Assembly: GCA_028291615.1 (NCBI GenBank)
Contig: JAQGHM010000014.1
Span: 1 to 43,689, forward strand
Source: Phycisphaerales bacterium
GTDB lineage: Bacteria > Planctomycetota > Phycisphaerae > Tepidisphaerales > Tepidisphaeraceae
Length of the DNA: 43,689 bases
Direction: 5' to 3'
Shown: positions 3,931-20,180 of the stretch, piece after piece
Layout: each line of letters starts with the position of its first letter
Position numbering within the stretch: the first letter of the stretch is position 1
Notes under the pieces: model-generated
The model's input: the letters and a program-made list of their open reading frames with translations, nothing else
What the model was told of the DNA's origin: nothing
Databases searched by the model: none
Translations under genes and position numbers: made by a program

Positions 3931-5156
3931 TCGACGCCGGCACCTTGGCCGTCATCATCGCTGGGCCCGGGCAAAAAGCTCCCGTCGGCGCACCCATCGC
4001 CGCCATGGCCACCGGTAAGGAAACCGTCGACGAAGTAAAAAAGAAATACGCCTCTGGCACCAGCGCCGCTGCTCCAGCCACCACTCAAAAAGCGCAGTCA
4101 GCGGGCGCACCACAGGCCGCTTCAACCCCCAAGTCCTCCACCGCCATTATTATGGAATCCCCCAACACCGCAGAACTCAAAGAACCCGACGAATCCATCG
4201 GACACGGCGCAACCCGTGAGGCCGCCCACGCGGTCCCGCCCATCCCCACAAGCGGCAACGGCAACGACCGCCTCAAGGTCTCTCCCCTCGCCAAGCGCAT
4301 CGCCCAGGACAAGGGCATCGACCTCCACCAAATTCGCGGCACCGGCCCCGCAGGACGCATCGTCCAGCAAGACGTCCTAAACGCCTCGCAAAAACCGACC
4401 GGCGCAGGCGCTCCCGCGACCCTCTCCCCCCCCGTCCAACTCACCGCCCGCGTCCCCACCGGTCAAACCGAAAAAGTCCAGCTCACTAAGATGCGCGTCG
4501 CCATCGCCACCGCCCTCCAGCGCTCCAAGCAGAACGTCCCCCACTTCTACGAGACGATGGACATCGACGTGGAAGAAATCTCCCAGCTCCGCGAGCGCCT
4601 CAACAAGCGCCTCGAAAAAGAAAAAATCCGCCTCAGCCTCGGCGACTTCGTCACCCAAGCCGTAGCCGCCGCCCTCAAGCGCCACCCCATCCTCAACGCC
4701 ACCTTCGACCCCGCCAAAAACGAAATCACCCGCTACGGCGACGTCAACCTAGGCATCGCCGTCGCCCTCCCCGACGGCCTGATCGTTCCCGTCATCAAGG
4801 GCGTAGACCAGATGGGCCTGAAGGAAATCCGCCAGCGCAGCGTAGACATCGTAGAACGCGCCCGCGCCCAGAAGCTAAAGGGCGAAGAAATGAAAGGCGC
4901 CACCTTCACCGTAAGCAACTTAGGCGCATTCGGCGTCCGAGAATTCATGGCCATCATCAACCCCCCCGAAGTCGGCATCCTTGCAGTAGGCGGCGCAGAA
5001 AAACGCGCCGTCGTCCAAGGCGACCAGATCGTCCCCCGCACCATCATGACCGTCACCCTCAGCGCCGACCACCGGGTTGTCGATGGCGCCACCGCCGCAG
5101 ACTTCCTCCGTACCCTAAAAGGTCTCCTCGAAGAACCCGCAACCCAGTTGCTCTAA
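3780..5156 (+). CDS. pdhC: Dihydrolipoamide acetyltransferase, PDH E2
   Basis: E2 core of the pyruvate dehydrogenase complex, 458 aa; it transfers the acetyl group from its lipoyl arm to CoA. Domains in order: one lipoyl domain (about 1-78) with acceptor Lys43 in ETDKATMEME; an Ala/Pro-rich linker; a peripheral-subunit-binding domain (VSPLAKRIAQDKGIDL, GTGPAGRIVQQDV); and the catalytic domain with the active-site motif DHRVVDGA near the C-terminus. ATG 3780 is the only start that keeps the whole lipoyl domain. No ribosome site is visible; heptamer repeats fill that space. About 140 bp of its 5' end is almost identical to the start of the downstream E3 gene (see findings). Confidence 0.93.
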   Translation: MPTEITMPQQSDTMTEGTVVKWLKKEGDKIRAGEIIAEIETDKATMEMEAFDAGTLAVIIAGPGQKAPVGAPIAAMATGKETVDEVKKKYASGTSAAAPATTQKAQSAGAPQAASTPKSSTAIIMESPNTAELKEPDESIGHGATREAAHAVPPIPTSGNGNDRLKVSPLAKRIAQDKGIDLHQIRGTGPAGRIVQQDVLNASQKPTGAGAPATLSPPVQLTARVPTGQTEKVQLTKMRVAIATALQRSKQNVPHFYETMDIDVEEISQLRERLNKRLEKEKIRLSLGDFVTQAVAAALKRHPILNATFDPAKNEITRYGDVNLGIAVALPDGLIVPVIKGVDQMGLKEIRQRSVDIVERARAQKLKGEEMKGATFTVSNLGAFGVREFMAIINPPEVGILAVGGAEKRAVVQGDQIVPRTIMTVTLSADHRVVDGATAADFLRTLKGLLEEPATQLL

Positions 5157-5190: not shown

Positions 5191-5329
5191 CAGCAAACCC
5201 AGACCCGCGACATCTGCGCAAAACGCGAAATATTACCCGCCCATTTTAACCGTCACTCTCCACCTCATCGTGACAAGGCCCGCCCATTCCCCTATTATCC
5301 GCACCCCCTCGAACCGGAGAAAAAACGAC

Positions 5330-5480
5330 ATGCCCACCCCAATCACGATGCCCCAGCAAAGCGACACGATGACCGAAGGCACCGTCGTGAAGTGGCTCAA
5401 AAAAGAAGGCGACAAGATCAAGGCCGGCGAGATCATCGCCGAGATCGAGACCGACAAAGCCACCATGGAGATGGAAGCGT
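5330..5480 (+). repeat. Direct repeat copy 2 (lipoyl-domain DNA, lpdA)
   Basis: Second copy of the lipoyl-domain repeat, 1550 bp downstream of the first and in the same orientation. Recombination between the copies would delete the E2 body and leave an intact lipoyl-E3 gene. Confidence 0.85.
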
Positions 5481-7159
5481 TTGATTCCGGCACGCTGGCG
5501 GTAATCCTGGTCGGCCCGGGTCAGAAAGCGCCGGTGGGCGCACCGATCGCCGCTATGGCAACCAGCAAGGAAACCGTCGATGACGTGAAGAAGCAGTACG
5601 CCTCTGGAACCGGCGCAAAACCCCAACCCGCCCCCGCCGCGCCCACCGCCAAACCCGCCCAAACCGCCGCGCCCGCCCCGCAGTCGCTTGCGGTTTCGCG
5701 GCCCACTCGCACGCCCCCGACAAAACCCACCACCTACCACTACGACATCATCGTCATCGGCGGCGGCCCCGCCGGTTACGCCGCCGCCATCCGCGCCGGG
5801 CAACTCAAGCAGCGCGTCCTCTGCATCGAAAAGGAAAACCTCGGCGGCACCTGTCTGAATTGGGGCTGCATCCCCACCAAGGCCCTCCTCGAAGACGGCG
5901 CATTCGTCCGCCGCCTCCGCACCGAATCCGCCGAGCGCGGCGTCACCATCACCGACATGAAGGTCGATTTCTCCAAGATCGTCGCCCGCTCCCGCGCCAT
6001 CGCCGATAAACTCGCCAAAGGCATCGGCCATCTCTTCAAAAAATACCTCGTCCAGCACGTCATGGGCGTCGGACAGGTCCTCGGCGCGCACAAGGTGAAG
6101 GTAACCAGCCGCGAAGGCGCCAAAGAATACACCGCCCAGCACATCATCGTCGCCGTCGGCGCCAAGCCCACCGAGCTCCCCTTCGCCAGGTTCGACGGCA
6201 AGCAAATCATCACCTCGCGCGAGGCGATGAACCTCCCGAAACAACCCAAGCGCATCGCCATCATCGGCGCGGGCGCGATCGGCTGCGAGTTCGCCGATTT
6301 CTACAACGCGCTCGGCACCGAAGTGACTGTCGTTGAGATGCTCCCGCACTTATTGCCGAATGAAGACGAAGACGTCTCGATCTTGCTCGAGCGCATCTTC
6401 GCCAAGCGCGGCGTCAAGGTCCACCTCAAGACCAAGACCGACAAGATCGACAAGACCGCCGACGGCGTGAAGCTCACCCTCAGCGGTGAAAAGGCCGGAA
6501 CCGTCGACGCCGACGTCGTGCTTGTCGCCGTCGGCGTCGTCGCCAACACCGACGGCCTGGTCGGCCCCGGCGCCGGCCTCGAACTCGATCGAGGCCGAGT
6601 CAAGGTCGATCAGATATACAAGACCAACCTCGAAGATGTCTGGGCCGTCGGCGACTGCATCGCGATGCACTTCCCCGAGCAGATGGCCATGGGCAGCTAC
6701 CGCCACCCCGACCTCGCGCACGTCGCGCATCACGAGGCCGTCCACCTGGTCGATCGCATCGCCGGCCTGCACGACGACATGATCGATTACCGCAACATTC
6801 CCGCCTGCACCTACACCCATCCACAGGTCGCATCGATGGGCGCCACCGAGAAAAAACTCCGCGAACAGGGACGCCAGATCAAGATCGGAAAGTTCCCTTT
6901 CAGCGCGTCCGGCCGCGCGCTCGCCGCCGGTGAATCCGACGGCTTCGTCAAGCTGATCTTCGACGCGCAATACGGCGAGCTGCTCGGCGCGCACATGATC
7001 GGCGAAAACGTGACTGAGCTTCTCGCCGAGCTCGTCCTCGCGCGCAAACTCGAAGCCACCGAGGCAGAGATCATCGACGCCATGCATCCGCATCCAACGA
7101 TGAGCGAAGCGGTGATGGAAGCCGCCGGCGTCGCCGACGGCCGCGCCATTCACCTCTGA
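5330..7159 (+). CDS. lpdA: Dihydrolipoamide dehydrogenase (E3) with N-terminal lipoyl domain
   Basis: E3 of the pyruvate dehydrogenase complex, 609 aa; it reoxidises dihydrolipoamide using FAD and NAD+. Residues 1-78 form a complete lipoyl domain with acceptor Lys43, then an Ala/Pro linker to about 136. The flavoprotein follows: FAD motif GGGPAG (144-149), redox disulfide in GGTCLNWGC (Cys175, Cys180), NAD motif IIGAGAIGCEF, second FAD motif VWAVGDC, and the C-terminal His-Glu dyad in HPHPTMSEAVME. Usual E3s are about 470 aa; lipoyl-E3 fusions are known in several bacteria. ATG 5330 is preferred over an upstream in-frame start because CCGGAGA lies just before it and it aligns with the E2 start. 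Confidence 0.93.
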   Translation: MPTPITMPQQSDTMTEGTVVKWLKKEGDKIKAGEIIAEIETDKATMEMEAFDSGTLAVILVGPGQKAPVGAPIAAMATSKETVDDVKKQYASGTGAKPQPAPAAPTAKPAQTAAPAPQSLAVSRPTRTPPTKPTTYHYDIIVIGGGPAGYAAAIRAGQLKQRVLCIEKENLGGTCLNWGCIPTKALLEDGAFVRRLRTESAERGVTITDMKVDFSKIVARSRAIADKLAKGIGHLFKKYLVQHVMGVGQVLGAHKVKVTSREGAKEYTAQHIIVAVGAKPTELPFARFDGKQIITSREAMNLPKQPKRIAIIGAGAIGCEFADFYNALGTEVTVVEMLPHLLPNEDEDVSILLERIFAKRGVKVHLKTKTDKIDKTADGVKLTLSGEKAGTVDADVVLVAVGVVANTDGLVGPGAGLELDRGRVKVDQIYKTNLEDVWAVGDCIAMHFPEQMAMGSYRHPDLAHVAHHEAVHLVDRIAGLHDDMIDYRNIPACTYTHPQVASMGATEKKLREQGRQIKIGKFPFSASGRALAAGESDGFVKLIFDAQYGELLGAHMIGENVTELLAELVLARKLEATEAEIIDAMHPHPTMSEAVMEAAGVADGRAIHL

Positions 7160-7181
7160 TTCCACCTAACTTCCTGCGATC

Positions 7182-7210
7182 AAAAAATAGTGTTTTTCCC
7201 GCTATTTTTT
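7182..7210 (+). terminator. Possible terminator of the PDH operon
   Basis: AAAAAATAG (7182-7190) and CTATTTTTT (7202-7210) make a perfect 9-bp AT-rich stem 22 bp after the lpdA stop, with the T-run inside the 3' arm. The stem is weak, so efficiency is uncertain. Confidence 0.45.
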
Positions 7211-7238
7211 GCTGGATTCGCGCGTCACAGCTTATGTA
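7209..7238 (+). promoter_or_regulatory. Possible promoter of the large RNA
   Basis: TTGCTG (7209-7214) and TATGTA (7233-7238) are separated by 18 nt, immediately before the structured region. Each hexamer matches the sigma-70 consensus only in part, so this is tentative. Confidence 0.3.
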
Positions 7239-7244
7239 GTTTAA

Positions 7245-8468
7245 CACACGTAAGAGGTTCATTTCGATCGGCGCCCAAGTCGCCAGTAAAATCGGCGGAC
7301 GGCGCAAAAACTTCAGACAGGGACATTGATCCACCGGAAATCCCGGCGGACCGATTAGTCGCCTGAGTCCCTCACGACGCCGAAGGGCACGAGCGATCCC
7401 GCGACCCGCACTGCAGGCCCGCCGCGGAATCAAGCGCAAAGCCCACGGGCGCCAAGGCGCGTCAGAAATGGCGCGGCGGAGACCGGCGCGATGAAGACCT
7501 GAGAGAAGCGAAAAGCCCATGGCAGGAATGGCTGGTGGATTCGATCGGCCCTGTGCGTAAAAGCTATAGCGGGGCCGGCAGATCACACGGCACGGTTCGT
7601 CCGCGGGGCCAAACCCCAGGAGCCGCGGCCACAAACCCTTGGTCCGCCCTATCAGGTGGACCCCGCGACGATGAAACTCGCGGCGGCACGTGGCGAAACG
7701 GCAGGTGGGTGCGACGAAGGCCGACGAGGCGTCGTCACCCGCGGGCGGAAGTAAAACTGCGAAGGGAACAGATGAATCCCACGGGCGTCGCCGGGACTTT
7801 GACGGTCCCGGCCAGGTCGCGAGAACAGCCCGGCGCGGGCCCGGTACGTGAGCCGAAAGAAATCGGCCGCGAATGACCCGCGCGGGCGGCGTCTCCAACG
7901 CACGCAATTGAAAGCACCGGAGACGCGAGGCGCTAAAAACCGCATGGGCGAGCCGACTTCCTGGCGTGGGTGCCGAGGTCGGAACAACGCCGCAGCGGGA
8001 TGGCCCGGAGCAGGTAACTCCGGGCGGTACGGCGCGACCGGCGAACGCCGAAGGGACAAGGCGAAACCTCAAGAGAGGCGCCTGCCGGCCTGTCCGCATT
8101 GATGATGCGGGCGGATATAGCCGACGGGCCGGTGACGCGAAGGCGACCTGTGCACAAAGCGCGGGTCGGGCGCTGAAGCGAGCGCCGCGAACAGAGGCCG
8201 ACGTGGACGACGCGCAAGGATGGGAAGTCAGCGTCGCGAAACGTCAATCAGCGGATCCGGTCGGGCAAACCAATAGCCCGCGGGCGATCCGCCGATGAGT
8301 GCCTCGGGACAGCGGCGAATCGCACGAGTGCTCGGAGCACGTCGGCCAGCAATGGCGGCGGGCTCGTCCGACGTCGGCCGCGATCCTCTGAAGAGGACGG
8401 ACGATTGAAAGTTAGAATCTCAGCCTTGCTCGAACGAGAGCGACCGGATAACGGTCGCTCTTTTTATT
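7245..8468 (+). ncRNA. Candidate large structured non-coding RNA (about 1.2 kb), class unknown
   Basis: No convincing protein is encoded here: the open frames on both strands are Arg/Pro/Gly-rich and match no family I know. The DNA is packed with perfect stems: 7707-7716 with 7730-7740 (one bulge), 7790-7797 with 7805-7812, 7889-7896 with 7919-7926, 8003-8010 with 8018-8025, 8094-8099 with 8105-8110, and 8169-8174 with 8181-8186. It ends in a strong intrinsic terminator read on the plus strand, and a weak promoter-like pair precedes it. I see no RNase P or tmRNA signature, no group II domain V and no reverse-transcriptase frame. It could belong to a large ornate RNA class (GOLLD, ROOL, OLE type) or be new. 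The 5' end is approximate. Confidence 0.65.
8438..8465 (+). terminator. Intrinsic terminator of the large RNA
   Basis: GAGCGACCG (8438-8446), loop GATAA, CGGTCGCTC (8452-8460), then TTTTT: a perfect 9-bp GC-rich stem with a U-tract. It works only on the plus strand and does not follow any protein gene, so it marks the 3' end of the non-coding transcript. Confidence 0.85.
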
Positions 8469-8485: not shown

Positions 8486-8513
8486 TTGACATTGACCCCG
8501 CCCGTCCTAAAAT
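8486..8513 (+). promoter_or_regulatory. Strong sigma-70-like promoter
   Basis: TTGACA (8486-8491), 16-nt spacer, TAAAAT (8508-8513). This is the best promoter match I found in the window. Transcription would start near 8520, just before the leader ORF ribosome site AGGAG (8522-8526). Confidence 0.7.
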
Positions 8514-8533
8514 CGCCTGTCAGGAGATCCGAG

Positions 8534-8593
8534 ATGGCGGCGTTACCCTTCATTACTGGAATTCAAATTCGGCGAGGAAACGGCTGCGCCTAA
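8534..8593 (+). CDS. Putative 19-aa leader peptide with three Ile codons
   Basis: A 19-codon ORF reading MAALPFITGIQIRRGNGCA, preceded by AGGAG at 8522-8526 with 7-nt spacing. It lies between a strong promoter and an intrinsic terminator. Ile ATT codons sit at 8552, 8561 and 8567, and ileS is the second gene downstream. The bases 8588-8596 (GCCTAAGGG), spanning the stop codon, can pair at 7 of 9 positions with the 5' arm of the terminator stem. A ribosome stalled at the Ile codons would leave that segment free, whereas one reaching the stop would cover it. This is the arrangement of a leader-peptide attenuator. It may instead be a small RNA or an unrelated small protein. Confidence 0.5.
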   Translation: MAALPFITGIQIRRGNGCA

Positions 8594-8620
8594 GGGACCG
8601 CGTTTGATGTAATCACAACG

Positions 8621-8649
8621 ACCCTGAAGCGACGGCTTCAGGGTTTTTT
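8621..8649 (+). terminator. Intrinsic terminator / attenuator before the MATE gene
   Basis: ACCCTGAAGC (8621-8630), loop GACG, GGCTTCAGGGT (8635-8644), followed by a six-T run: a 10-bp perfect stem ending only 18 nt before the MATE start. Downstream genes therefore need read-through or another promoter, which suggests conditional termination. Confidence 0.85.
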
Positions 8650-20125: not shown

Positions 20126-20128
20126 CCC

Positions 20129-20156
20129 TTTTGCCTTTTGCCCTTTGCCTTTTGCC
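20129..20156 (+). repeat. Heptamer tandem repeat TTTTGCC
   Basis: Four heptamers in register: TTTTGCC, TTTTGCC, CTTTGCC, TTTTGCC, beginning 4 nt after the stop codon at 20123-20125. Fills most of the gap to the next gene. Confidence 0.7.
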
Positions 20157-20180
20157 TTCGTCCCCCTACCATCCCGCCCC

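What the first reader, a model, noticed from the sequence alone, without database searches (positions are those of the whole stretch)
7245..8468. A 1.2-kb structured non-coding RNA of unknown class with its own terminator
Seen: more than 1.2 kb between lpdA and the next transcription unit has no believable gene. It holds at least six perfect or near-perfect stems of 6-10 bp with short loops and ends in a strong plus-strand intrinsic terminator (8438-8465) that serves no protein gene. A weak promoter-like pair (7209-7238) precedes it. Known: bacterial RNAs this large and ornate are few (rRNA, group II introns, OLE, GOLLD, ROOL). I see no RNase P or tmRNA signature, no group II domain V and no reverse transcriptase. 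Inference: this is a highly structured RNA, possibly an undescribed planctomycete class.
Basis: partly seen in the sequence, partly recalled or inferred. Interest (0 to 1): 0.88.

Follow-up and report, generated by a model that had tools for sequence, protein, structure and literature searches.

The report
Undescribed giant structured bacterial RNA
Two planctomycete genera carry, right behind the same metabolic gene, a 1.2- to 1.8-kilobase stretch with no recognisable protein in which 15 short blocks and many matching predicted stems are kept while the rest has changed, so it is likely an undescribed class of giant RNA, predicted to work as a folded structural or catalytic RNA in its own right.

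Summary
Window 7245-8468, between lpdA and a MATE/ileS unit, has no recognisable gene and no Rfam match. It folds far better than its dinucleotide shuffles (z -7.6; three nearby genes -2.2 to +0.3). A relative sits in the same place, just behind lpdA, in another genus of the family (G020, a named Phycisphaerae MAG), 1.83 kb against about 1.2 kb here. Fifteen blocks (194 of 213 columns identical) lie in the same order between segments that differ in sequence and length. Folded separately, the two share 13 co-located stem matches; 120 shuffles gave 3.4 on average and 8 at most. Many of these stems are built from different letters. Both are predicted to close end to end by the same helix and end in a plus-strand terminator. 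Two covariance models built from the pair found no third member in 397 class genomes, and one of them none in 392 phylum genomes. Searches of phage, plasmid and viral collections found none either. This is an undescribed RNA class, rare at the sensitivity reached. Transcription and function are untested. Best guess: a stand-alone structural RNA, comparable in kind but unrelated to OLE, ROOL and GOLLD; a ribozyme is the main rival.

The parts
5270..7159 (+). lpdA (lipoyl domain plus dihydrolipoamide dehydrogenase), last gene of a pyruvate dehydrogenase cluster; the same gene precedes the RNA in G020
   Evidence: Pfam; tblastn
7183..7211 (+). A/T-rich inverted repeat AAAAAATAG...CTATTTTTT, possible end of the lpdA transcript (inferred)
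   Evidence: read from sequence
7205..7251 (+). presumed promoter region; a T-run, one or two bases, then CTGG 35-36 nt before AAGAGG in both genomes; no sigma-70 match by the scan
   Evidence: side-by-side print; scan
7245..8468 (+). the structured RNA gene, about 1.2 kb including terminator; 5' end inferred
7254..7260 (+). closing helix P1 (predicted), 5' arm GAGGTTC, pairs with 8415-8421
   Evidence: mean pair probability 0.97; recurs in the G020 fold
8415..8421 (+). closing helix P1, 3' arm GAATCTC
7262..7270 (+). P2 (predicted), 5' arm, pairs with 8402-8410; against G020, 7 of 9 pairs changed on both sides, 1 unchanged, 1 broken
8402..8410 (+). P2, 3' arm
7271..7305 (+). hairpin P3a/P3b (GCGCC/GGCGC here, GCACC/GGTGC in G020: one G-C to A-U change), leading into block 2
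7311..7321 (+). conserved block CYTCAGACAGG
7437..7447 (+). conserved block CAAAGCCCACG
7498..7528 (+). conserved block CCTGARAGARGC(G)AAAAGCCCANGGCAGGAA
7744..7766 (+). conserved block GGCGGRAGYAAAMCTGCGAAGGG
7790..7812 (+). hairpin with changed letters on both sides of some pairs in G020, abutting block GGCCAGGTCGCGA
7810..7822 (+). conserved block GGCCAGGTCGCGA; GGTCGCG pairs with CGCGACC 8033-8039 (CGCGGCC in G020)
7936..7953 (+). conserved block AAAACCGCANGGRCGAGC, pairs with 7988-7998
7988..8002 (+). conserved block CGYCGMAGCGGGATG
8050..8082 (+). conserved block GAAGGGRCAAG...AAACCTCANGAGAGGMGCC with hairpin CCTC/GAGG
8125..8134 (+). conserved block CGGGCCGGTG
8436..8462 (+). intrinsic terminator of the RNA (11 pairs, then a T-run)
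   Evidence: G020 equivalent L074 4696-4720

Best explanation
Window 7245-8468 holds a stretch without a recognisable protein that keeps 15 sequence blocks and many co-located predicted stems with a relative behind the same gene in another genus, and it is likely the gene of an undescribed stand-alone giant RNA that would work as a folded structural RNA, alone or as the scaffold of an RNA-protein particle. Shown: no Pfam-recognisable gene, no known RNA family over threshold, the relative in the same place, the conserved blocks, predicted stems at matching places with changed letters, shared closing-helix letters and a terminator-like hairpin in both. Inferred: that it is transcribed from its own promoter behind lpdA, that the end-to-end helix closes a multi-domain core, and that this core, decorated with variable peripheral stems, acts in trans. 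The pattern of a near-invariant core with growing and shrinking arms is that of known large RNA machines (general knowledge), which is why a structural or catalytic RNA is preferred to a regulator of the neighbouring genes.
For: No Pfam match in 8 ORFs; frame not conserved between the two. No Rfam family over its cut-off in the window and none credible at E<=10 in either copy. MFE z -7.6 against -2.2, +0.3 and +0.2 for stretches of three genes; G020 copy z -5.0 against -0.95 and -0.96. Relative behind lpdA in G020, four colinear local matches of E 6e-6 to 8e-4 in its 12-kb contig stretch. 15 colinear blocks, picked by eye, 194 of 213 columns identical; a chain score over these block patterns is 201 for the full copy in both genomes, and at most 39 in the 212 loci, of 226 scored, that are not copies of these two. 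13 co-located stem matches between separate folds, null mean 3.4, sd 1.7, maximum 8 of 120 shuffles; counting stems with at least 3 pairs reaching outside the blocks, 9 against 1.4, maximum 5. Twelve hand-picked helices: 73 pairs, 41 unchanged, 26 changed on both sides, 5 on one side, 1 broken. Plus-strand terminator-like hairpins in both. One copy found in its genome (87% complete).
Against: Only two members, so no R-scape-grade covariation; the 15 blocks were picked because they match and the 12 helices because they pair in both. Two earlier forms of the shared-stem test were weak. The closing helix alone is not improbable: 90 of 891 comparable low-GC pairs and 43 of 2000 shuffles bind at least as well, and its P1 letters do not vary between the two. 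The reverse complement also folds well (z -3.7 here; -5.5 in G020 against -5.0 for the plus strand), so the strand rests on the terminators. No consensus promoter was found. No transcript data. The lpdA tree neither firmly joins nor separates the two carriers (32% of bootstrap trees join them). Nothing tested here separates a structural RNA from a ribozyme or a regulator.
Confidence: 0.62

Rival explanations
1. A large ribozyme: the near-invariant blocks would form an active site brought together by the closing helix, acting on another RNA or on itself.
For: Block conservation (194 of 213 columns) with variable arms, the pattern of RNase P and group I/II cores (general knowledge).
Against: No match to any Rfam ribozyme at E<=10; RNase P lies elsewhere in both genomes; no substrate or cleavage junction is visible.
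Confidence: 0.2
2. A cis-acting element: a long 3' UTR of the pyruvate dehydrogenase operon or a leader of the MATE/ileS unit.
For: It directly follows lpdA in both carriers.
Against: A terminator closes it before the next gene; in G020 no MATE or ileS match lies in the 7.3 kb read behind it; 1.2-1.8 kb exceeds known cis-elements (general knowledge); in the 20 other family loci whose lpdA downstream stretch could be scored, the blocks are absent there.
Confidence: 0.08
3. A worn-out mobile RNA element such as a group II intron without its reverse transcriptase, or a phage-derived giant RNA.
For: Patchy distribution: 2 of 26 held genomes of the order; similar ornate fold.
Against: No intron or phage RNA family at E<=10; same locus in two genera; the blocks are not decaying; no phage or plasmid match and none of the viral-contig motif hits carries the block chain.
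Confidence: 0.05
4. A fast-evolving or misread protein gene, for instance the 342-aa minus-strand frame 7071-8099.
For: The frame is open for 342 codons.
Against: No Pfam match; its best tblastn match in the relative is 17 residues at E 0.011, over the best-conserved nucleotide block; indels are not in threes (5 of 14); it runs antisense through the end of lpdA.
Confidence: 0.01

Closest known systems
OLE, ROOL and GOLLD RNAs (large ornate bacterial RNAs; PMC12286853, passages seen)
   Same: Large stand-alone bacterial RNAs with elaborate secondary structure; function of ROOL and GOLLD unknown (passages). Predicted structural elaboration and lack of a protein here are comparable.
   Different: No covariance-model match at E<=10. 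Longer than the lengths given in the passages seen: 577 nt for the OLE solved, many GOLLD over 800 nt, here about 1.2 and 1.8 kb. ROOL and GOLLD are phage- or prophage-borne, often near tRNAs; this one sits beside housekeeping genes with no tRNA in the window.
RNase P RNA (RF00010)
   Same: Conserved core blocks with variable peripheral helices; a few short words such as AAACCGC and GCGGGAU occur in both (recalled resemblance, not tested as homology).
   Different: No RNase P match here; RNase P RNA over the family's cut-off lies elsewhere in the window's genome and in G020.
Group II introns
   Same: Multi-domain RNA closed by long-range pairing (general knowledge).
   Different: No group II family match at E<=10, no reverse transcriptase among the 8 ORFs tested, own terminator, lies between genes.

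Membership tests
OLE RNA | match to the family covariance model | tested here: not met
   no match at E<=10 in either copy
OLE RNA | membrane localisation and OLE-associated protein partners | not testable with these tools
   needs experiments
ROOL RNA | match to the family covariance model | tested here: not met
ROOL RNA | phage or prophage setting, often near tRNA islands | tested here: not met
   no tRNA in the window; PDH, MATE and ileS neighbours; no phage or plasmid match; viral motif hits lack the chain
GOLLD RNA | match to the family covariance model | tested here: not met
GOLLD RNA | homo-oligomeric RNA cage | not testable with these tools
   needs cryo-EM or native mass measurement
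RNase P RNA | match to RF00010 | tested here: not met
   no match here; the genome's own is at G000:C314:9982-10397
Group II intron | match to a group II covariance model (domain V or D1-D4) | tested here: not met
   none at E<=10
Group II intron | intron-encoded reverse transcriptase (optional in the family) | tested here: not met
   no Pfam match in 8 ORFs of the stretch
tmRNA | ARAGORN tmRNA call | tested here: not met
   0 genes in the window
Large structured non-coding RNA (general kind) | structure conserved through paired changes in homologues | tested here: met
   (13 co-located stem matches, null maximum 8 of 120); only two sequences, and two cruder tests were weak
Large structured non-coding RNA (general kind) | discrete transcript | not testable with these tools

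The most novel reading that the evidence does not exclude
An undescribed class of giant RNA machine, 1.2-1.8 kb and so longer than typical OLE, ROOL or GOLLD RNAs, carried beside housekeeping genes of planctomycetes rather than by phages, in which 15 near-invariant blocks held together by an end-to-end helix form an RNA active site or a self-assembling RNA particle.
Probability: 0.3. Interest if true: 0.92.

Novelty: categorically new. Interest (0 to 1): 0.74.

Why it matters
Bacterial non-coding RNAs above 1 kb other than rRNA are very few (general knowledge), and the known large classes OLE, ROOL and GOLLD turned out to have unexpected RNA architecture (PMC12286853, passages). This would add a class that matches no Rfam family, sits in a housekeeping setting and has a sharply defined conserved core, so probing, deletion and cryo-EM can be aimed at named nucleotides. 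It also shows a search lesson: blastn with one member did not recover the other, and neither did a single-sequence covariance model, so such RNAs can stay hidden even between genera of one family. It is called categorically new at the level of RNA class; the broad idea of large structured bacterial RNAs is known.

Tried and rejected
Blastn of the stretch: 101 relatives (only itself) and 397 class genomes at E<=0.05 (140 genomes with a match, mostly short ones on both strands; the 29 loci fetched besides the window's own show no block chain; the list was cut, the one G020 match shown is elsewhere and its second is not listed). These negatives say little, because the G020 copy as query does not recover the window copy either. 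That search also gave one other match, G025:C375 (37 bases, E 5.9e-4); its locus has no chain. Single-sequence model R1 (7995-8175) in 61 genomes: 6 genomes at E<=0.1; the matches in the five others lie inside long open frames and are taken as chance; it missed G020. Motif scan of genome contigs: 55 stretches, of which only L159 (= G020) carries the other blocks. Two-sequence model R2 (its training sequences are the two members): 5 of 397 class genomes at E<=0.01, the three others taken as chance, inside open frames; 2 of 392 phylum genomes at E<=0.003, the window's own and G550, which lies in the 3' end of an open frame. R3 (5' block, same two training sequences): 3 of 397 at E<=0.02; the third, G100, lies in a long open frame and has no chain. 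These searches of about 400 genomes used Infernal's stricter filters. Viral contigs, six exact-motif scans: 0 stretches; 5; 11; 14; 1; 37; none carries the chain.

First test of shared stems by outermost pair of merged stems: 2 shared, 20 of 100 shuffles as many, though 1 of 100 reached the 17 shared pairs. Anchor-to-anchor pairs: 19 shared, 40 shuffles mean 11, maximum 18, weak because anchors are near-identical. The criterion was then changed to co-located single stacks, which is the figure used; its null is mononucleotide shuffling of the non-block segments, and one window stack and one G020 stack each enter two of the 13 matches. End-helix significance by itself: weak. Block GCGCAAG occurs twice in the G020 copy, so that block is weak. 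Literature: three searches; of the rows listed (10, 15 and 15 of 11, 25,930 and 1,273 papers) no title or abstract start describes a large planctomycete or Phycisphaerae RNA, and no row holds the word Phycisphaer; beyond that only passages of PMC12286853 were seen.

Full report
What was claimed.

The observation. Between the lpdA stop (7159) and the MATE gene (8668) eight ORFs of the stretch, including the 342-aa minus-strand frame, have no Pfam match at E<=1. T is 12% and G 35% on the plus strand. The fold energy of 7250-8425 is 7.6 standard deviations below 24 dinucleotide shuffles; stretches of lpd, MATE and ileS of the same length lie at -2.2, +0.3 and +0.2. The fold has 31 stems of 4 or more pairs with mean probability over 0.6, among them an end-to-end pair of helices, 7254-7260/8415-8421 and 7262-7270/8402-8410, just inside the terminator 8436-8462. 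That end helix is weak evidence on its own (90 of 891 low-GC pairs and 43 of 2000 shuffles do as well). No Rfam family reaches its threshold in the window, and the four matches at E<=10 are weak.

Finding a relative. Blastn and a single-sequence covariance model gave nothing believable. Reading downstream of lpdA in the family did: G020:C90 has three colinear weak matches behind its own lpdA, and the fetched contig shows a fourth (E 6e-6). Its copy runs from about L074 2886 to the terminator 4696-4720, about 1.83 kb against about 1.2 kb here.

What is conserved. Fifteen blocks of 7-33 columns, picked by eye as matching, occur in the same order, 194 of 213 columns identical. The segments between them differ in length (for example 55 against 301, 50 against 141) and not in threes (5 of 14 differences are multiples of three). 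A chain score over the block patterns is 201 for the full copy in both genomes. Of all 226 loci held, 14 are whole or partial copies of these two; the other 212 score at most 39, and shuffled sequences at most 29. G020 folded alone again closes with the GAGGTTC/GAATCTC pairing.

Paired change. Each RNA was folded on its own and stems were compared by position relative to the blocks. 13 stem matches were found; with the non-block segments of G020 shuffled, 120 trials gave 3.4 on average and 8 at most; counting only stems with at least 3 pairs reaching outside the blocks, 9 against 1.4, maximum 5. Two earlier, cruder versions of this test were weak. Twelve helices followed pair by pair give 73 pairs: 41 unchanged, 26 changed on both sides, 5 on one side and 1 broken; these helices were chosen because they pair in both. 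Examples: GCGCC/GGCGC here, GCACC/GGTGC there; GGCG/CGCC against GACG/CGTC; CCGACTTC/GAGGTCGG against GCTCCGG/CTGGAGC.

Distribution. R2 and R3 were built from the two members, so these match by construction; the question is whether they find a third. R2 found none believable among 397 class genomes, among the 26 held genomes of the order or among 392 phylum genomes, a sample that apparently did not include G020. R3, from a different part of the RNA, found none believable in the 397. The window copy has only short pieces at E>=0.3 in phage and plasmid records, the G020 copy nothing at E<=0.01; viral-contig motif hits lack the chain. One copy was found in the window's own genome, which is 87% complete. 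In the lpdA tree the carriers lie in one unresolved group of ten; one origin is not ruled out. G019, just outside that group, has lpdA, about 1 kb without the blocks, then MATE and ileS.

What it is not. RNase P RNA over the family cut-off is present elsewhere in both carriers. No tRNA or tmRNA was called in the window. No intron family, OLE, ROOL or GOLLD appears at E<=10 in either copy.

How it may work (inferred). A near-invariant core with arms that grow and shrink, predicted to close end to end and ended by its own terminator, is the pattern of a trans-acting structural or catalytic RNA. I prefer a structural RNA, alone or with proteins, over a ribozyme, because no catalytic family or cleavage site is visible; this preference is weak. 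Nothing here shows transcription, and the strand rests on the terminators, since the reverse complement also folds well, in G020 slightly better by z.

Noticed in passing
window 8486-8645: Directly behind the RNA lies what looks like a second tiny unit: a sigma-70-like promoter TTGACA-16-TAAAAT (8486-8513, 11 of 12), a 19-codon ORF MAALPFITGIQIRRGNGCA from 8534 and a hairpin terminator (8620-8645). No copy was seen in other fetched loci with up to 4 changes; one exact-pattern scan of viral contigs found none.
   Followed up: partly
window 7381-7447 and 7744-7790; L074 3048-3166 and 3609-3660: Within the RNA a module GAAGGG ... CCCAYG seems to occur twice (blocks 3-4, and behind block GGCGGRAG), and AAAGCCCA recurs in block CCTGARAGA; possibly an internal duplication. 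Read by eye.
   Followed up: no
L074 2731-2810: Between lpdA and the RNA in G020, TTGACGATTGA / TCAATCGTCAA units repeat several times as inverted repeats (read from the print).
   Followed up: no
L075 7330-8031: In G019 the lpdA-MATE interval holds a 233-aa ORF on the opposite strand and no block chain.
   Followed up: partly
window 20126-20160: Short imperfect repeats of CCTTTTGCC at the start of an 810-bp interval between ORFs of 150 aa or more; the interval seems to hold shorter ORFs and is probably ordinary.
   Followed up: no
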